Below, in pieces: positions 6,094 through 61,400 of a stretch of DNA of 63,602 nucleotides. A program made the position numbers and the translations under genes. The first letter of the stretch is position 1, and every line of letters starts with the position of its first letter. This DNA comes from Oscillospiraceae bacterium (GTDB lineage Bacteria; Bacillota_A; Clostridia; Oscillospirales; Oscillospiraceae), in the NCBI GenBank assembly GCA_017398105.1, contig JAFQHF010000008.1, positions 1-63,602 on the forward strand. The letters are read 5' to 3'. The notes under the pieces are model-generated. The model saw nothing but the letters and a program-made list of their open reading frames with translations. It was not told where the DNA came from and did not search any database.

Positions 6094-6123
6094 AAAAGGA
6101 GGAGCGGTTATCGCTCCTCCTTT
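6094..6123 (+). terminator. Terminator hairpin, copy 1 of a duplicated pair
   Basis: GGAGGAGCG (6098-6106) pairs perfectly with CGCTCCTCC (6112-6120) and is followed by TTT and preceded by A-rich sequence. It immediately follows the yfhO stop codon. The same 31-base unit is repeated at 6340-6370. Confidence 0.85.
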
Positions 6124-6339
6124 CAGCGTGTCGATAAACCTTCTGGCGCGGTAGCGCCTAAGGCTCCCTCAGATGAGGGAGCTGTCAGCGAAGCTGACTG
6201 AGGGAGAGAAAAAGTTTCAAGTATCACAATTTATTTTAGATTTTCAAAACTTTTAGGTTCTCTCCCCCAGTCACGGCTCCCGCCGTGACAGCCCCCTCTC
6301 AGAGGGGGCCTGCGCGCTAACATACCTTTTTCGACACGC
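6124..6339. mobile_element. Repeat element D between duplicated terminator hairpins
   Basis: A 216-base non-coding block bounded by the inverted termini GCGTGTCGA(T)AAA at the left and its complement TTTTTCGACACGC at the right, placed exactly between two copies of the yfhO/DUF1810 terminator hairpin. Its left terminus (CAGCGTGTCGA) matches the ends of elements A, B and C elsewhere in the window. The interior is different and holds a second inverted repeat (6162-6310). No open reading frame of note. I infer a non-autonomous mobile element that inserted into a terminator. Confidence 0.65.
6162..6310. repeat. MITE-like inverted repeat inside element D
   Basis: The left arm begins GGCTCCCTCAGATGAGGGAG and the complement of the right arm begins GGCCCCCTCTGAGAGGGGGC. 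The two arms remain alignable for about 50 bases, each containing its own small hairpins, around an AT-rich centre. This is the layout of a miniature inverted-repeat element; similar GGCTCCCTC-type repeats are familiar from gut Clostridia. Confidence 0.6.
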
Positions 6340-6370
6340 AAAAGGAGGAGCGGTTATCGCTCCTCCTTTT
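6340..6370 (-). terminator. Terminator hairpin, copy 2 of a duplicated pair
   Basis: Second copy of the hairpin at 6094-6123 (GGAGGAGCG, loop GTTAT, CGCTCCTCC), identical through stem and loop. The last codons and the TAA stop of the minus-strand DUF1810 gene lie inside this hairpin, so it overlaps coding sequence. Confidence 0.8.
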
Positions 6371-8171: not shown

Positions 8172-11100
8172 ATGAAGAAGAGAATTGTATGCGTATTACT
8201 GACTCTGATCATGCTGATGAGCCTGCTGCCCGTTTCTGCGTCTGCAGCCAGCCGCTCTGTCAGCGAGAATGCAATCACGATTTTGAAGCAGCTGGAAGGC
8301 TATACCACTGCCTGCGCCGGTAAGGGCAGCACCTTTGGTTACGGCACCATCTGCACCAAGAAGGAAGCACACACCTACCATTCCGAAAAGGAAGCAGACG
8401 CTGCGCTTCGTGAAGCCCTGAAGGATCTGGACAAGGCTGTCAACAGCTTCTCCTCCAGCAAGGGCGCTGCCCTGACTCAGGGCCAGCACGATGCTCTGGT
8501 TCTGTTCTCCTTTGAAAACGGCACCGCATGGACCACCGGCACCGGTGATCTGCAGGCTGCTGTTGTCAACAAGCTGACCGGCAGCGATTTCCTGAACGCC
8601 ATCTGCCGCTGGGATGCCAGTGTCAATGACGACAGCCGCAGAATGATCGAGGCCAACATGTACCTGAACGGCGTGTACAACAGCACCCGTCCTTCCAACT
8701 ACATCCGGGTTCGCTATGATGCCAACGGCGGCAGCCTGAACGGCAGCTCCGAATATCAGTATTATGATGTGGCCTCCAAGCCCGCACCTCACCTGGTGCC
8801 CTTCATGGATCATTATAATACCTTCACCGGCTGGTACATTACCGATCCCAATTCCTACGCACATAACGTCCAGGTCACCAAGCTGACCGCTGATTTCCAT
8901 AATACGACCCTGACCGCACACTGGGCATACATTTACGGTGAGCCCGGCGATGTCACCGAGGGCTACTCCATCCCCAAGGCTGAGATCGCATCTCAGATCG
9001 TCTACAAGTACAACTCCACCAAGCAGGAGTTTGAGAAGATCAGCAGCACCACTGCAAACGATCTGCTGTTCGAAGGCATCCTGTATGCTGACAGCGTGCA
9101 CATCGGTGAAGACGGCATCAAGTGGGCAAGAGCCCAGGGCACTGACTACTGGGTAAAGGTAAAGGGCACCGGCTCCAAGGCCACTGCTGATGCAGATGCC
9201 AACATTGCCTACATCGATGTTACCGTTACCGTTACCAACTCCCGCGTGAATATGCGTGTCAACGCAAGCACCAGCAGCCGTCAGAACGGCTCCTACAAGA
9301 AGGGCGACAAGGTCCGCATCATCAACACCGCCAACGGCAGCGGCCTGCTGTGGGGCCAGGTTGCAGCTTCTGCCACCGACAATACGCCCATCGGCTGGAT
9401 CGCTCTGATGTACACCAACTTCGAGTCTGTCCGGGATTCTCAGGAAGCTACCACTCCTGTCAATAACTCCATTGCCATTGCCAAGGCAACCATTACCTAC
9501 AACGGCTACGTCAATGTCCGCAGCGATGCCGGCATGGACAACAAGATCGTCAGCGCCCTGCCCTTCGGCACGGAAGTTGACATTTACGAGACCAAGTTCG
9601 TCAACGGTCAGGAATGGGGCCGCTGCAACGCCGGCTGGTTCAGCCTGAAGTACGCAAGCGTTGAGCGCCTGAAGACCGACAACAGCTATAAGACCGACGT
9701 GGGCTTTACCTCCTATGTCTTTACCGGTACCCTGGAGCACCAGCAGCTCTATGTTGCTCCCGGCGGCGATCCCATCAACAGCTGGCTGCGCATTGATCCC
9801 AATGTTACCGTTACCAACCTGGTTGAAAAGGACGGCATCACCTGGGGCAAGATTCCCGAAGGCTGGGTCAAGGTCTCCTATGATGACGGTTCCGTGGCTG
9901 ATGTAAGACTGGACAGCGCAAAGTATCTGGTTTCTGCAGAGAGCCTGACCGTCCGCGAAGCTCCCAATACCGCAGCTCCCCGCGTGAATACCGTTTCTCT
10001 GGTGAAGAACGTTGAGTTCTTTGTCAACGTACACAAGCAGGTCGTTGTCTCCGGTGACAGCATCTGGGGCTATGCCACCAAGGCCGGCGAAGATGCAGGC
10101 ACCAGCAGCTACTACGGCTGGGTCAACCTGGCAAACAAGTATGTTACCCGCAACGGCATCCCCGCTGTGGACGGCGGCAATGATGCAGCTTCTTCCACTG
10201 CAATGATGGCTACTGTCGTTGGCACCAACAGCGTTAAGGTTCGAATCACCGGCGCTACCTACGGCAAGCAGATCGGCACTCTGTCCATGGGCACTACCGC
10301 TGCCATCATCGAAGAGAAGGACGGCTGGTACAACCTGGATATCGATGTGGACGGCAACCCCGAAACCGGCAGCTGGGTCTCCGGCAAGTACCTGGATATC
10401 CATCAGGGCACTACCGGCGGCACTTCCTCCGATAACGTCGCCAACGGCGGCAGCACCTCTTCCAACGGCGCGGTTGAGACCGGCCTGGGCATCGTTGCCA
10501 ACACCTACGCAGGCGTAAATGTCCGTACCGGCGCAGGCACCGGCTATGCTTCCAACGGCAAGCTGCTGCCCGGCACCACTGTTGAAATCATGGAAGTCGT
10601 CACCAAGGGCGCATCCAAGTGGGGCCGTACCGCTCAGGGCTGGGTCTGCATGGACTACATCACCATGATCTCCACCTATCCCGTTGCAGGCAGCACTGCT
10701 TCCGGCAACACCTCCGGTACTACCGGCAGCACCAGCACCGGCAGCACTGTGACCTCCAGCGAACCCGCAATCTACACCGGTACCGCCAATGGCACCGTTG
10801 AGGTCTACAAGACCACTTCCCGTAATTCTGAGGTTGTCCGTACTCTGTCTGACGGCTCTCCCGTCACCATGCATGAGATCCTGACCGTCTCTGAAGATGT
10901 TACTACCAATACTTCTACCGATAATGGCGGTTCCGTGACCACCACTCAGAAGGTTACTTCCTACTGGGCCCGCGTCAACGACGGCTACATCTACGCTCCC
11001 GGCGAAAATATCAACCTGGACACCGTGGACGAGCATACCTACACCATGACCGGTTCCAACTCCCTGAACGTCCGCAACAATCCCGGCACCAGCGGCACCA

Positions 11101-11726
11101 GTGTCCTGTTCAAGCTGGAAAAGGGCGACCAGGTCAAGGTCACCCAGCTGAAGATCGTCAACAGCGGCATCTGGGGCTTCATCGAGTGCGATAAGGGCAC
11201 CGGTTGGGCAAGCCTGTCCTACATGACCAAGGGCGCTGTTACCATCCAGCCCGAAACTCCCGCTCCTGAAACCACGCCTGTGGTTCCCAACACTCCCGCA
11301 CTGGGCAACGGCAGCAATGTCGGCGGCTTCGTGACCAACACCAGCGGCTACCGCTACACCGGTAAGGTCATCCGTGCCAATGAAGTGAACGTGCGTGCAA
11401 CTCCCTCCACCTCCGCGTCCAAGACCACCACTCTGTCCAACGGCCAGGCTCTGGTGATCTACGAAACCACCACTGCTGAGAACATGGCCTGGGGCCGCTG
11501 CGATGCAGGCTGGGTCTACCTGTACTACGTAGACCTGACCCCCGTGGTCAACGGCGCTGTGGATGCCCGTGTTGTCTACAATGAGAACACCATCATCTAC
11601 ACCGATGTCAATGGCTCCGGCGTGGCCGGCACTTACGCAAGAATGTCTGTCATCGATATCTACGAGATCGTTGGCAAGATGGCCCGCACCGAACTGGGCT
11701 GGGTCAACACCGACAACCTGCTGTAA
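8172..11726 (+). CDS. Secreted GH24-type lysozyme with InlB-type and multiple SH3 domains
   Basis: A 1184-residue exported protein. A signal peptide (MKKRIVCVLL to about ASAA, residue 26) is followed by a phage-lysozyme-like GH24 domain (about 30-170) with LEG (E42 as candidate acid) and the STFGYG motif. Residues about 175-255 match an InlB B-repeat (YDANGG, FTGWY, LTAHW). From about 350 to the end there are eight or nine SH3b-like units with the V(N/K)VR signature (near 355, 444, 590, 687, 780, 875, 963, 1070), separated by Thr/Ser/Gly-rich linkers. I expect peptidoglycan cleavage at the cell wall. Codon use is strongly biased to C-ending codons, suggesting very high expression. AAGGAG precedes the ATG. 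Upstream control looks WalR-type. Confidence 0.85.
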   Translation: MKKRIVCVLLTLIMLMSLLPVSASAASRSVSENAITILKQLEGYTTACAGKGSTFGYGTICTKKEAHTYHSEKEADAALREALKDLDKAVNSFSSSKGAALTQGQHDALVLFSFENGTAWTTGTGDLQAAVVNKLTGSDFLNAICRWDASVNDDSRRMIEANMYLNGVYNSTRPSNYIRVRYDANGGSLNGSSEYQYYDVASKPAPHLVPFMDHYNTFTGWYITDPNSYAHNVQVTKLTADFHNTTLTAHWAYIYGEPGDVTEGYSIPKAEIASQIVYKYNSTKQEFEKISSTTANDLLFEGILYADSVHIGEDGIKWARAQGTDYWVKVKGTGSKATADADANIAYIDVTVTVTNSRVNMRVNASTSSRQNGSYKKGDKVRIINTANGSGLLWGQVAASATDNTPIGWIALMYTNFESVRDSQEATTPVNNSIAIAKATITYNGYVNVRSDAGMDNKIVSALPFGTEVDIYETKFVNGQEWGRCNAGWFSLKYASVERLKTDNSYKTDVGFTSYVFTGTLEHQQLYVAPGGDPINSWLRIDPNVTVTNLVEKDGITWGKIPEGWVKVSYDDGSVADVRLDSAKYLVSAESLTVREAPNTAAPRVNTVSLVKNVEFFVNVHKQVVVSGDSIWGYATKAGEDAGTSSYYGWVNLANKYVTRNGIPAVDGGNDAASSTAMMATVVGTNSVKVRITGATYGKQIGTLSMGTTAAIIEEKDGWYNLDIDVDGNPETGSWVSGKYLDIHQGTTGGTSSDNVANGGSTSSNGAVETGLGIVANTYAGVNVRTGAGTGYASNGKLLPGTTVEIMEVVTKGASKWGRTAQGWVCMDYITMISTYPVAGSTASGNTSGTTGSTSTGSTVTSSEPAIYTGTANGTVEVYKTTSRNSEVVRTLSDGSPVTMHEILTVSEDVTTNTSTDNGGSVTTTQKVTSYWARVNDGYIYAPGENINLDTVDEHTYTMTGSNSLNVRNNPGTSGTSVLFKLEKGDQVKVTQLKIVNSGIWGFIECDKGTGWASLSYMTKGAVTIQPETPAPETTPVVPNTPALGNGSNVGGFVTNTSGYRYTGKVIRANEVNVRATPSTSASKTTTLSNGQALVIYETTTAENMAWGRCDAGWVYLYYVDLTPVVNGAVDARVVYNENTIIYTDVNGSGVAGTYARMSVIDIYEIVGKMARTELGWVNTDNLL

Positions 11727-11736
11727 TCCCAATTCC

Positions 11737-11768
11737 AAAAACACCACGGGTTACCCCGTGGTGTTTTT
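11737..11768 (+). terminator. Terminator hairpin of the lysozyme gene, copy 1
   Basis: AAAAACACCACGGG pairs with CCCCGTGGTGTTTTT around a TTA loop. It is followed at once by element A, and an almost identical hairpin (loop TCG) lies on the other side at 11947-11978. Confidence 0.92.
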
Positions 11769-11946
11769 GACTGTAGAAAGAGGCTTCGCAGAATTTGCCG
11801 CGGCAGCGGAAAACCTATTTCAATTATTTTTGGCCGCGGCGTGTACGTGGACAAAAATACATCTCAGGCTGCAAGTGTGCGAGTTGTGCGCGCAGCAGAC
11901 TGCAGAAAACTGGCGGAAAGCCCCGAAGGGGATTTTCGACACGCTG
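11769..11946 (-). mobile_element. Repeat element A (short form) between duplicated terminator hairpins
   Basis: A 178-base non-coding element. Read on the minus strand it starts CAGCGTGTCGAAAATCCCC and ends CTTTCTACAGTC, and it aligns over its whole length with elements B (36058-36408) and C (49269-49574). Compared with B it lacks a 123-base module at the point GAGTTGTG|CGCGCAGC. It is flanked on each side by a copy of the same terminator hairpin. It contains no credible coding sequence. I infer an insertion into the lysozyme terminator. Confidence 0.75.
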
Positions 11947-11978
11947 AAACACCACGGGTCGCCCCGTGGTGTTTTTTT
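11947..11978 (+). terminator. Terminator hairpin, copy 2
   Basis: AAACACCACGGG, loop TCG, CCCCGTGGTG then seven T. Stem identical to 11737-11768, with two loop bases changed. It now separates element A from the thyA promoter. Confidence 0.9.
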
Positions 11979-27135: not shown

Positions 27136-27167
27136 AAAAACACCACGGAGGAATCTGTGGTGTTTTT
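27136..27167 (+). terminator. Terminator of the SEDS-PBP operon
   Basis: AAAAACACCAC pairs with GTGGTGTTTTT around a 10-base loop. The stem resembles the lysozyme terminator at 11737-11768. Confidence 0.88.
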
Positions 27168-35978: not shown

Positions 35979-36035
35979 TTTCGTGCATTTATGTTAACCG
36001 TAAGTTTCCAGAGAGAACAGGGATAACAGAAAACC

Positions 36036-36057
36036 GGCGCACCCAATTGGATGCGCC
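36036..36057. terminator. Hairpin flanking element B, copy 1
   Basis: GGCGCACCC AATT GGATGCGCC: 8 of 9 pairs. On the minus strand it is followed by GGTTTTCTG. Identical except for one loop base to 36409-36430. Confidence 0.7.
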
Positions 36058-36408
36058 GCAGATTGTAGAAAAAGCCTCGCAGAGTTTTCTGCGAAAGCAG
36101 AAAATAAAGTCCCAATTGTTTTCGACCGCGGCGCACCCCAGGGTGGCTTCTCTTGCCCTTTCAGGGCAATTCACCTTCTGTACGTGGGCGAAAACACTTC
36201 TCAGGCTGCAAGTGTGCGAGTTGTGTGCCAAAGGTTACGGGGCCCCATCAAGCAAATTGTGCTTGATGGGGAGAGGAGATGCGCAGATACAGGTGGAATT
36301 TTCTGCTTGCAGAAAATGCAACAGTGTATCTGATGCATCGACGAAGTGCGCGCAGCAGACTGCAAAAAAGCTGGAGGAAAGCCCCGAAGGGGATTTTCGC
36401 CACGCTGC
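36058..36408 (-). mobile_element. Repeat element B (long form) between duplicated hairpins
   Basis: A 351-base non-coding element. On the minus strand it starts GCAGCGTGGCGAAAATCCCC and ends in CTTTTTCTACAATCTGC. It aligns with element C over almost its whole length, with a few per cent mismatch by eye. It has a 45-base insertion relative to C (36134-36178) made of two hairpins, and a 123-base module (36226-36348) that element A lacks. It fills most of the 550-base gap between the LRR promoter and the tex gene. Confidence 0.78.
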
Positions 36409-36436: not shown

Positions 36437-38578
36437 TTATTCCTTTACCTGCTTCATGGACAGGCTGATCCGGTGGCGCTTTTCATCCACGCCCAGAACC
36501 ACGACCTTCACCACATCTCCAACCTTCACCATCTCGCTGGGATGGCGAAGACGCTTGCTGCAAACCTCGGAAATATGCACAAGTCCGTCCTGATGCACAC
36601 CGATGTCCACGAATACGCCAAAGTCGATGACATTGCGGACGGTGCCGGTCAGTACCATGCCGGGTTTCAAATCCTTCATTTCCAGAACATCCTTGCGCAG
36701 AATGGGGGCGGGCAGCTCATCACGGGGGTCCCGGCCGGGCTTTGCCAGCTCTTTGGCAATATCCAGCAGCGTGGGTTCGCCCACGGCGCATTCCGCGGCG
36801 GCTTTGGCAAGGCCGTAGCGTTCCAGCTTATTCACCAAATCGGACAGGTTATCGCCCTTTTTGCAGCCCAGCAGCTCCAGCAGCGCCCTGGCTGCGGCAT
36901 AGGATTCCGGATGCACGCCGGTGTTGTCCAGAATTTCCTTGCTTTCCGGGATGCGCAGGAAGCCTGCGCACTGCTGGAAGGCTTTGGGACCCAGCTTGGG
37001 AACCTTCTTCAGCTGGGCGCGGCTGGTGAAGGGGCCGTTTTCCTCCCGGTAGGCAACGATATTCTTTGCGGTGGCGGCAGTCAGACCGGAGACCTGCTGC
37101 AGAAGGCTCCGGGAGGCGGTATTGGCATCCACGCCCACAGAATTAACGCAGTCCTCCACCACGCCGCCCAGGGCGGCATCCAGCTCCTTCTGGGGGCAGT
37201 CATGCTGATACTGACCCACGCCGATGGCCTTGGGATCGATCTTGACCAGCTCTGCCAGAGGGTCCTGCAGTCTTCTGGCAATGGACACGGCGGAGCGCAG
37301 ATTTACATCGAATTCCGGGAATTCCTCTGCTGCCAGTGCAGAGGCGGAGTATACGGAGGCGCCTGCCTCGTTGACGATCATATAGCTGGCATTGGGGAAG
37401 GAACGCAGCAGCTCCACCGTCATGGCCTCCGTTTCCCGGGAAGCGGTTCCGTTGCCGATGGCGATGTGCTGAACGCCGTGCTTACGCATCAGGCCGGACA
37501 GAACGGTGATGGCTTCCTGCTTTTTCCGCTCACTGAAGGTGGGATAAACCACGGAGGTGTCCAGCACCTTTCCGGTGGCATCCACCACAGCCACCTTGCA
37601 GCCGTTGCGGTAACCGGGATCAAGCCCCATGGTGACGAATCCCTTGACAGGGGGCTGCATCAGCAGAGGCTTCAGGTTCAGCGCGAAATTATGAATGGCA
37701 CCGGCATAAGCCCGGTCAGACAGTTCGCTGCGGACTTCCCGCTGAATGGAGGGGAAGATCAGCCGCTCATAGGCATCCTCCGCTGCAGAGCGGACAAAGG
37801 CGGAAACGGTCATCACCGGCTTCAGTGCGGCACGGCAGACCAGTGCCATGCCTTCGTTTCCGACTATGGCCACATTGGGCTTCAGAATGCCCTCCTTTTC
37901 GCCACGGTTCATGGCCAGAATCTGATGATCCAGCAGGCGGGAGATGGGCTGGCTGAAATCGTAGTACAGCTTGTATACGCCGTCCTCTTCTGCATCCTCT
38001 GCGGCCTTGCAGGTAAAGACACCCCGGCGCATGACCAGCTCCCGAAGGGACTTTCGGATGTCCGCATCATCGGAAAGATTTTCTGCAATGATGTCATTGG
38101 CACCCTGCAGGGCTTCTTCCACGGTGCTGACACCCTTTTCGGGGTCAACGTAGCTTTCTGCCAGGGTCTCGGGATTTTGGCCGTCCTGGGCGAAGATGGC
38201 ATCGGCCAGGGGTTCCAGACCCTTTTCCCGGGCCACGGAGCCCCGGGTGCGGCGCTTCTGCTTATAGGGCCGGTACAGGTCTTCCACCTCGGTCATGGTG
38301 GCGGCGGCATCGATGGCGGCGGACAGTTCTTCCGTCAGCTTACCCTGATTTTCAATGGATTTTTTCACTTCCTCCCGGCGGGCCTGAAGATTTCGCAGAT
38401 AAGTCAGACGGGTCTCCAGATTGCGCAGGGTAGTGTCGTCCATGGCACCGTGCATTTCCTTGCGGTACCGGGCGATAAAGGGAATGGTATTGCCCTCATC
38501 CATAAGGGCTACCACATTTTCAACATATTCCAGCTTCTGTCCCAGCTCCTGGGCCAGAATTTCAGTGATGGATAACAT
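36437..38578 (-). CDS. tex: Tex-family RNA-binding transcription accessory protein
   Basis: A 713-residue Tex protein: N-terminal helical region (IPFIARYRKEMHGAMDDTTL), YqgF-like RNase H fold (MGLDPGYRNGCKVAVVDATG, GNGTASRETE, VNEAGASVYSASALA), helix-hairpin-helix motifs (about 490-560, including SVGVDANTASRSLLQQVSGL) and a C-terminal S1 RNA-binding domain (about 645-713). Tex-like proteins bind RNA and affect transcription and translation fidelity. AAAGGAG lies before the ATG at 38578. It is divergent from the tRNA-Ala gene. Confidence 0.95.
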   Translation of the reverse strand: MLSITEILAQELGQKLEYVENVVALMDEGNTIPFIARYRKEMHGAMDDTTLRNLETRLTYLRNLQARREEVKKSIENQGKLTEELSAAIDAAATMTEVEDLYRPYKQKRRTRGSVAREKGLEPLADAIFAQDGQNPETLAESYVDPEKGVSTVEEALQGANDIIAENLSDDADIRKSLRELVMRRGVFTCKAAEDAEEDGVYKLYYDFSQPISRLLDHQILAMNRGEKEGILKPNVAIVGNEGMALVCRAALKPVMTVSAFVRSAAEDAYERLIFPSIQREVRSELSDRAYAGAIHNFALNLKPLLMQPPVKGFVTMGLDPGYRNGCKVAVVDATGKVLDTSVVYPTFSERKKQEAITVLSGLMRKHGVQHIAIGNGTASRETEAMTVELLRSFPNASYMIVNEAGASVYSASALAAEEFPEFDVNLRSAVSIARRLQDPLAELVKIDPKAIGVGQYQHDCPQKELDAALGGVVEDCVNSVGVDANTASRSLLQQVSGLTAATAKNIVAYREENGPFTSRAQLKKVPKLGPKAFQQCAGFLRIPESKEILDNTGVHPESYAAARALLELLGCKKGDNLSDLVNKLERYGLAKAAAECAVGEPTLLDIAKELAKPGRDPRDELPAPILRKDVLEMKDLKPGMVLTGTVRNVIDFGVFVDIGVHQDGLVHISEVCSKRLRHPSEMVKVGDVVKVVVLGVDEKRHRISLSMKQVKE

Positions 38579-49236: not shown

Positions 49237-49241
49237 ATCTT

Positions 49242-49268
49242 GGGGCGCAGGAAAATCCTGCGCCCCTT
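49242..49268 (+). terminator. Terminator hairpin of the PadR-HAAS operon, copy 1
   Basis: GGGGCGCAGG pairs perfectly with CCTGCGCCCC, loop AAAAT, followed by only TT before element C begins. Repeated at 49575-49602. Confidence 0.85.
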
Positions 49269-49574
49269 CAGCGTGGCGAAAATCCCCTTCGGGGCTTTCC
49301 GCCAGCTTTTGCAGTCTGCTGCGCGCACTTCGTCGATGCATCAGATACACTGTTGCATTTTCTGCAAGCAGAAAATTCCACCTGTATCTGCGCATCTCCT
49401 CTCCCCATCAAGCACAATTTGCTTGATGGGGGCCCCGTAGCCTTTGGCACACAACTCGCACACTTGCAGCCTGATATGTGTTTTCGCCCACGTACACGCC
49501 GCGGTCGAAAACGGTTTTGGACTTTATTTTCTGCTCACGCAGAAAACTCTGCGAGGCTTTTTCTACAGTATGTT
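49269..49574 (+). mobile_element. Repeat element C between duplicated terminator hairpins
   Basis: A 306-base non-coding element beginning CAGCGTGGCGAAAATCCCC and ending GGCTTTTTCTACAGT and a few bases. Close relative of element B (36058-36408), in opposite chromosomal orientation, but lacking B's 45-base insertion. It contains several hairpins, among them CCCCTTCGGGG, TTTTCTGC AA GCAGAAAA and CCCCATCAAGCA/TGCTTGATGGGG. It occupies most of the 470-base gap before the nucleoside kinase gene. Short reading frames inside it have no ribosome binding sites. Confidence 0.78.
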
Positions 49575-49602
49575 GGGCGCAGGAAAATCCTGCGCCCCTT
49601 TT
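49575..49602 (+). terminator. Terminator hairpin, copy 2
   Basis: GGGCGCAGG AAAAT CCTGCGCCC then CTTTT. Same hairpin as 49242-49268, with a longer T-run. So the copy distal to the CAGCGTG end keeps the complete terminator. Confidence 0.85.
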
Positions 49603-58873: not shown

Positions 58874-59178
58874 GACCGGCTTATAACAAGGTCGCACTAG
58901 TCGGGGAGATAGCGGTGCCCTGTACCTGCAATCCGCTATAGCAGGGATGAATCCCCACACCCGGATAAGTTTGAATATCGCCCGAGTTTCGTAAGTGGTG
59001 TTGAGAGATCGGTCTTGCGCAACGGGATCCCGTGAACCATGTCAGGTGGGGAACCAAGCAGCATTAAGCGGATCTTCCCGTGTGCCGCGGGGTTGCCGTT
59101 CTTGAGCTTACTGCGTTGCTTCCGGATATTCGGCTCGTTCAAATGTGGGTGTGCGATCTTGTTATGAGCCGGTCTTTT
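58874..59178 (+). ncRNA. ffs: Signal recognition particle RNA, large form with Alu domain
   Basis: About 305 bases. GACCGGCTTATAACAAGGTC at the 5' end pairs with GATCTTGTTATGAGCCGGTC at the 3' end, followed by TTTTT. The Alu domain contains CGGGGAGATAGCGGTGCCCT with GTACCTGCAATCCGCTATAGC (about 58898-58947), and the S-domain tip has GTCAGGTGGGGAACC, then AAGCAGCATTAAG (59041-59068), the Ffh-binding loop. It scaffolds the SRP that delivers nascent membrane proteins. ffs just before dnaX is the common Firmicutes order. Confidence 0.92.
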
Positions 59179-61322: not shown

Positions 61323-61400
61323 TGTAGGGCGGCTTGCCCTCAAGCCGCCGCATATTCGAATGCAAGAGCAAACGGCGGCTTGAGGGCAAGCCGCCCTACA
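61323..61400. repeat. Perfect 28-base inverted repeat between ybaB and recR
   Basis: TGTAGGGCGGCTTGCCCTCA continuing to AGCCGCCG (61323-61350) is the exact reverse complement of 61373-61400, around a 22-base spacer. Within each arm GGCGGCTTG/CAAGCCGCC also pairs. It looks like a MITE inserted inside the operon. Confidence 0.75.

What the first reader, a model, noticed from the sequence alone, without database searches (positions are those of the whole stretch)
11737..11978. Element A sits between two copies of the lysozyme terminator: insertion into a terminator with duplication of the hairpin
Seen directly: the hairpin AACACCACGGG/CCCCGTGGTG occurs on both sides of a 178-base non-coding block, with identical stems and a two-base change in the loop. 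The same arrangement, with a different hairpin, recurs around elements B, C and D. A target duplication of about 30 bases that covers exactly one terminator suggests an element that recognises the hairpin or the DNA/RNA structure of terminators. The host gene keeps a working terminator after insertion, so the insertion is nearly harmless. Some insertion-sequence groups make long target duplications, but I do not know one with this terminator preference and this body.
Basis: partly seen in the sequence, partly recalled or inferred. Interest (0 to 1): 0.88.

Follow-up and report, generated by a model that had tools for sequence, protein, structure and literature searches.

The report
Transposons that duplicate whole terminator hairpins
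Short mobile DNA pieces in this genome and its relatives insert at palindromes, mostly the hairpins that end transcription, and leave a copy of the hairpin on both sides; they share their ends with one branch of a known transposon family.

Summary
Element A (11769-11946) lies between two 30-nt copies of one hairpin; B, C and D each lie between copies of a different hairpin. Orthologous sites without the element have one strong hairpin: 9 of 9 loci for A; for B 6 of 9, one interrupted, one none, one with two around another insert. In the genus of a relative, 45 of 61 genomes carry the end motif CAGNNTGTCGAAAA; 75 of 88 ends sit against a strong fold, versus 25% of random 40-mers. Full elements with such ends encode IS1182-family transposases. 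In 36 paired insertions the duplication is 18-34 bp and centred on the hairpin dyad: 26 exactly, all within 2 nt; in 17 of 21 full IS loci it is 20-35 bp, 16 exactly centred. Best reading: A-D are non-autonomous relatives of a palindrome-targeting IS1182 branch, with strand transfer at the feet of an extruded hairpin or cruciform (inferred). IS1272 of this family replaces hairpins; whole-hairpin duplication was drawn in 2017 as a hypothetical alternative. Verdict: new variant of a known kind.

The parts
11739..11768 (+). Element A, left target copy: hairpin just after the lysozyme/SH3 gene (8172-11726)
   Evidence: (family D7)
11769..11946 (-). Element A, 178-nt non-coding element; CAGCGTGTCGAAAA terminus read on the minus strand
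11947..11976 (+). Element A, right target copy, loop differs by two bases; terminator-like by consensus scan
6094..6123 (+). Element B, left target copy (hairpin after the yfhO-like gene; listed by the scan on the minus strand)
6124..6339 (+). Element B, 216 nt, different body, termini CAGCGTGTCGA...TTTTCGACACGC
6340..6369 (+). Element B, right target copy, identical to the left over 30 nt
36035..36058 (-). Element C, target copy (hairpin beyond the end of the tex gene, 36437-38578 minus)
36059..36407 (-). Element C, 349 nt, ends CAGATTGTAGAAAA and CAGCGTGGCGAAAA
36408..36431 (-). Element C, second target copy, 23 of 24 identical
49241..49268 (+). Element D, left target copy
49269..49572 (+). 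Element D, 304 nt, inverted relative to C and 96-99% alike over its two longest shared arms
49573..49600 (+). Element D, right target copy

Best explanation
Elements A-D are miniature non-autonomous elements (MITEs) moved in trans by transposases of one branch of the IS1182 family. SHOWN: ends of the CAGnnTGTCGAAAA type shared with full IS1182-type elements; insertion at palindromes of unrelated sequence; duplications of 18-35 bp centred on the dyad axis; a single hairpin at most empty sites. INFERRED: that A-D were moved by this transposase; that the palindrome is extruded as a cruciform (or a single-strand hairpin), which brings its two feet together; that the two 3' ends of the element attack opposite strands at the 5' feet of the stem, and gap repair copies the hairpin to both sides. 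The stagger would then be set by how far the stem is extruded rather than by a fixed transposase geometry. Because the target is usually terminator-like and is duplicated, the upstream gene probably keeps a terminator and the insertion would be nearly neutral.
For: Four window elements with four different duplicated hairpins. Single strong hairpin at orthologous sites: 9 of 9 for A, 6 of 9 for B; one full IS copy against 2 of 2 relatives, flanks overlapping by 20 and 24 nt of the palindrome. Ends abut strong folds in 75 of 88 against about 25% of 3000 random 40-mers. Symmetry: 26 of 36 exact, 36 of 36 within 2 nt, r 0.93, 0 of 100000 permutations as good; 21 full IS loci, chosen because hairpins had been seen beside them, gave 17 duplications, 16 exact, r 0.995 (L128 and L147 are in both sets). 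Watson-Crick pairing steps from 0.31-0.44 outside the edge to 0.58, 0.81, 0.86 inside. 4 of 4 transposases tested score 384-394 bits for NF033551 IS1182, cut-off 270. Five IS copies of at least 99.9% identity in one genome, 4 with palindromic duplications of 22-30 bp. The palindrome-duplicating transposases form one group in two trees (13 rows, 100/99; 22 rows, SH-aLRT 94).
Against: No whole genome of the window's organism is held, so its own transposase was not seen. Seven of 15 genomes chosen as motif-bearing had no PF13751 match, including G287, G281 and G310. Only 43 of 100 ends could be paired at all. Duplication length is not a clean function of palindrome length (r 0.28, P 0.098). Four of 21 full IS loci had no duplication but a different hairpin at each end (L148, L254, L311, L313), as did L145, outside that set; one end of L146 had no hairpin. 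At site B, L025 has two hairpins without this element and L046 none by the test used. The 10 inexact cases lean to one side (8 of 10). No experiment; cruciform and single-strand hairpin were not separated.
Confidence: 0.82

Rival explanations
1. The transposase reads the palindrome as two-fold symmetric double-stranded DNA through a dimer, without any extruded hairpin.
For: Also predicts dyad-centred duplications.
Against: Duplications from 18 to 35 bp at targets of unrelated sequence; a rigid dimer should give one spacing.
Confidence: 0.2
2. Targeting is not special; insertions elsewhere are removed by selection, so only those at terminators survive.
For: Terminators are plausible tolerant sites, and each window element leaves a hairpin on both sides.
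Against: Selection does not explain why the duplication is centred on the dyad to the base (16 of 17), nor why five copies of at least 99.9% identity, hence presumably recent, all have a palindrome at both ends.
Confidence: 0.05
3. The flanking hairpins are part of the element, for example terminal palindromes carried by the transposon.
For: Hairpins lie at both ends of the four window elements.
Against: Hairpins differ between copies of the same body, and 9 of 9 A-site and 6 of 9 B-site loci without the element have a single strong hairpin.
Confidence: 0.02

Closest known systems
IS1182 family of insertion sequences (NCBIfam NF033551)
   Same: Transposases of the full elements score well over the family cut-off; Pfam PF05598, PF13751, PF01609 in 2 of 2 scanned. 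Palindromic targets of some members are attributed to Siguier et al. by PMC4923244 (passages) and PMC5678879 (Discussion part 1); the Siguier papers were not read.
   Different: 17 copies with GGGGCTGT-type or similar ends in four multi-copy genomes (G563, G515, G404, G582) have no flank of 45 nt folding below -10.0 kcal/mol. One published member, ISCaa15, is tabulated with a 4-bp direct repeat (PMC3196728, passage).
IS1272 and TnSha1 of staphylococci
   Same: Same family; targets are inverted repeats or terminators of unrelated sequence (PMC4923244 passages; PMC5678879 abstract and sections).
   Different: IS1272 replaces or partly deletes the hairpin and leaves no duplication; here the hairpin is duplicated. 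An IS1272-like transposase (L314; identity inferred from size and fabI neighbour) groups with the non-duplicating rows.
Pathway b of the structure-dependent transposition model of Wan et al. 2017 (PMC5678879, Fig. 13 legend)
   Different: There it is a hypothetical alternative, not what they infer for IS1272; here it is the outcome seen in many loci.
Bacterial MITEs such as BOX, RUP, SPRITE
   Same: Short interspersed elements, of which SPRITE holds terminator-like sequence (review PMC10969869, passages).
   Different: None of the passages read describes duplication of a host terminator as target. Those elements were not tested here.

Membership tests
IS1182 family (for the full-length elements) | Transposase matching the curated family model | tested here: met
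   4 of 4 proteins over the cut-off
IS1182 family (for the full-length elements) | Terminal inverted repeats around a transposase gene | tested here: met
   L128 1520 bp, L147 1569 bp; ends paired in 17 of 21 loci
IS1182-derived MITE (elements A-D) | Same terminal inverted repeats as a full element | tested here: met
   CAGCGTGTCGAAAA and variants in A-D, same pattern as CAGTCTGTCGAAAA at both ends of L257; the two variable bases differ
IS1182-derived MITE (elements A-D) | Same kind of target duplication as a full element | tested here: met
IS1182-derived MITE (elements A-D) | Mobilised by that transposase in the same genome | not testable with these tools
   no whole genome held for the window; in 7 of 15 motif-bearing relatives no PF13751 match
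IS1272-type stem-loop replacement | No target duplication; hairpin lost on insertion | tested here: not met
   hairpin present on both sides

The most novel reading that the evidence does not exclude
A clade of IS1182 transposases integrates at four-way (cruciform) junctions: the target is defined by DNA structure alone, and the stagger is variable because it is fixed by how far the stem is extruded, so each insertion records in its duplication where the junction stood. IS1272-type replacement and this duplication would be two outcomes of one junction-directed reaction, split between two branches of the family.
Probability: 0.55. Interest if true: 0.78.

Novelty: new variant of a known kind. 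Interest (0 to 1): 0.67.

Why it matters
It gives a large natural data set for structure-directed transposition, proposed in 2017 from a few IS1272 insertions, and shows the duplication outcome at many independent sites. If right, it explains how mobile elements can multiply in compact genomes by copying rather than destroying the terminator they hit, and offers a way to map where palindromes extrude in living cells. It also warns that paired identical terminators around a short non-coding block can be a footprint of transposition.

Tried and rejected
Element C DNA had no match in phages or plasmids. A body-specific 19-base pattern was found in 1 of 200 family genomes and element C DNA in 4 of 11, so the A/C/D body is rare although the termini are common. 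Hairpin length by folding or by palindrome walk did not predict duplication length (r 0.29 and 0.28); the symmetry test replaced it. An apparent 1.5-kb element in L125 was a false pairing over host genes. Seven of 43 pairings were dropped by the strict end rule: L187, L193, L207, L081, L125 and window A and B. A first automatic end finder paired 2 of 33 IS loci, the rest not examined one by one. In the first tree 13 of 36 listed loci gave no protein to the ORF picker. The second tree had a changed list of 32 loci, none missing: 2 hairpin-labelled, 6 non-hairpin and 4 unlabelled loci of the first list were not carried over and 8 rows were added. The IS1202 group (recalled) was considered from its long duplications and dropped once IS1182 transposases were found. 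No structure prediction was run.

Literature limits: nine searches of a CC-licensed PMC library. Neither their listings nor the passages and sections read show whole-hairpin duplication by IS1182 elements as an observed result. ISfinder was not available and one review asked for was not held; my memory that ISfinder lists long duplications for IS1182 comes from no call.

Full report
Observation. Element A is 178 nt of non-coding DNA between the end of a lysozyme/SH3-domain gene and a thymidylate synthase gene. It is bracketed by two 30-nt copies of one hairpin that differ by two loop bases. B, C and D show the same plan with three other hairpins. A, C and D share body sequence; B shares only its ends. 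The ends are inverted repeats, CAGCGTG(T/G)CGAAAA on one side and CAGnnTGTnGAAAA-like on the other in C and D.

Empty sites. No genome of the window's organism is held. A search with the dihydrofolate reductase near A gave 80 loci, mostly metagenome assemblies titled Oscillospiraceae. Nine of the 80 align on both sides of the A site: 9 of 9 have one strong hairpin (13-18 paired bases) and no element, two of them with an additional weak, unrelated 8-9-bp fold. Nine align on both sides of the B site: 6 have one strong hairpin (one of these, L040, also a weak 8-bp fold), L052 has one interrupted hairpin, L046 none of 8 or more contiguous pairs, and L025 two similar hairpins around another insert of about 240 nt. 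The hairpins have diverged between species, so this is orthology of position, not a same-strain empty site. For one full IS copy in G499 (L283), 2 of 2 relatives have a single palindrome with both flanks continuing (left flank 80-82%, right 70-72% identical; flank matches overlap by 20 and 24 nt). For a second copy (L281), one relative has a single, different hairpin at that place, but only the left flank aligned.

Relatives of the element. One relative genome (G008) carries a close copy of A at a hairpin, with one target copy degraded. In its genus the motif CAGNNTGTCGAAAA occurs in 45 of 61 genomes; G287 has 31 occurrences against 0 for the reversed control pattern, G310 has 43 against 1; in many other genomes counts are no higher than the control. 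I fetched 80 regions of 9 of those genomes, chosen from the printed part of the list. Of 88 distinct ends with enough sequence upstream, 75 have 40 nt outside the end that folds below -12 kcal/mol, median -20.0; in 3000 random 40-mers from the same loci the median is -8.8 and about 25% pass. Of the 13 exceptions, by reading, four look like chance matches in genes, five are internal palindromes of a longer element in G310 and G285, and four are weak or unclear.

Target duplications. Of 100 ends examined (the 88 plus 12 others) 43 could be paired with a second hairpin copy; after a strict rule for the right terminus 36 remain. Lengths run from 18 to 34 bp, mean 26.8, s.d. 4.2. Measured from the dyad axis, left and right half-lengths agree: r 0.93, 26 of 36 equal, 36 of 36 within 2 nt, and none of 100000 permutations is as symmetric. 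Watson-Crick pairing across the site is 0.31-0.44 at nine positions outside the duplication and 0.58, 0.81, 0.86 at the first three inside. Length does not simply follow the palindrome: r 0.28, P 0.098; 27 of 36 are within 4 nt of the hairpin span, and most of the rest are cut inside a longer palindrome. By a simple count without a control, 28 of 36 sites have an A-rich or T-rich side as terminators do and 8 have neither.

The mobilising family. PF13751 transposases occur in 3 of 11 first relatives and 65 of 250 family genomes, 57 over the cut-off. L128 and L147 hold complete elements of 1520 and 1569 bp between duplicated hairpins. Four such transposases match NCBIfam IS1182 at 384-394 bits, cut-off 270. 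A wider search found IS1182 matches in 112 of 291 genomes, 32 over the cut-off. G499 has five copies at least 99.9% identical; four lie in palindromic duplications of 22-30 bp and the fifth (L280, the place of L254) has a different hairpin at each end. Plasmid-collection copies from Lactococcus, Cetobacterium, Sutcliffiella and Acetoanaerobium show the duplication; those from Peribacillus and Exiguobacterium have two different hairpins. Across 21 full IS loci, picked because hairpins had been seen beside them, 17 gave a duplication of 20-35 bp and 16 of 17 are exactly centred, r 0.995; L128 and L147 are in both data sets. Because of that choice, the 17 of 21 is not an estimate of how often the branch duplicates; the centring is the independent result.

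Two branches. In four multi-copy genomes with GGGGCTGT-like ends, none of the 34 flanks of 17 copies folds below -10.0 kcal/mol; but the flanks there look AT-rich, and one true palindrome in G499 also folds weakly (-3.0). In trees the palindrome-duplicating transposases are one group (23 rows, support 100/99, 32 rows, SH-aLRT 94), and an IS1272-like transposase from a Staphylococcus haemolyticus plasmid groups with the others. The labels were set by me from the ends, several non-hairpin labels rest on single copies, and one row (L295) is a very long branch.

Mechanism. A fixed protein geometry on linear DNA does not easily give staggers from 18 to 35 bp that are centred on the dyad. If the palindrome is folded into a cruciform, its feet meet at one junction whatever the stem length; attack at the 5' feet on opposite strands and gap repair duplicate the hairpin. 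Wan et al. drew this as pathway b, an alternative to the replacement they infer for IS1272 (PMC5678879: abstract, sections 21 and 22, section 29 part 1). Furi et al. report hairpins, several confirmed as terminators, as TnSha1 targets with partial deletion and no duplication (PMC4923244, passages). The present loci look like natural products of pathway b. Extrusion itself is inferred; a hairpin on single-stranded DNA would do as well.

Meaning for the host. At A both hairpin copies carry T-runs, but a consensus scan lists only the right one as terminator-like. At sites cut at the stem base, the copy next to the element may lose its T-run while the far copy keeps it; read-through was not measured. 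Two different hairpins around one IS (4 of 21, and L145) are most simply explained by recombination between IS copies, which was not tested. A published survey lists IS1182 among families over-represented in the ->IS<- arrangement of neighbouring genes (PMC9208149, passage), which would fit insertion at terminators.

Limits. The genomes are single representatives of species, many are fragmented assemblies, and 7 of 15 motif-bearing genomes show no PF13751 transposase. The library of papers holds only openly licensed papers, so priority in print cannot be settled here.

Noticed in passing
L025 4290-4690: The B-site orthologue has two similar hairpins around a different insert of about 240 nt; by eye it lacks the CAG...TGTCGAAAA termini. 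Perhaps an older or different element that used the same terminator.
   Followed up: partly
L227-L234 (G310), L237 (G285), L216, L217, L220: Several elements have an end with two facing terminal repeats close together (such as CAGTCTGTCGAAAA...TTTTCGACAGACTG, about 33 bp), so the end of the transposon can itself form a hairpin.
   Followed up: no
L254/L280, L311, L313, L148, L145: IS1182-type copies with a different hairpin at each end, as if IS copies had recombined.
   Followed up: partly
L160: The two target copies differ in the loop as exact reverse complements of each other, as if the hairpin top had flipped.
   Followed up: no
window 61323-61400: Perfect 28-nt inverted repeat (TGTAGGGCGGCTTGCCC...) around 22 nt, resembling palindromes that serve as targets in G008.
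   Followed up: no
window 27138-27167: A third hairpin, 80% identical to the A terminator copy; its surroundings were not examined.
   Followed up: no
window 58892-59156: Bacterial large signal recognition particle RNA gene (Rfam RF01854).
   Followed up: no
L308: The record called a plasmid of Acetoanaerobium noterae is 2.6 Mb long and may be a chromosome.
   Followed up: no
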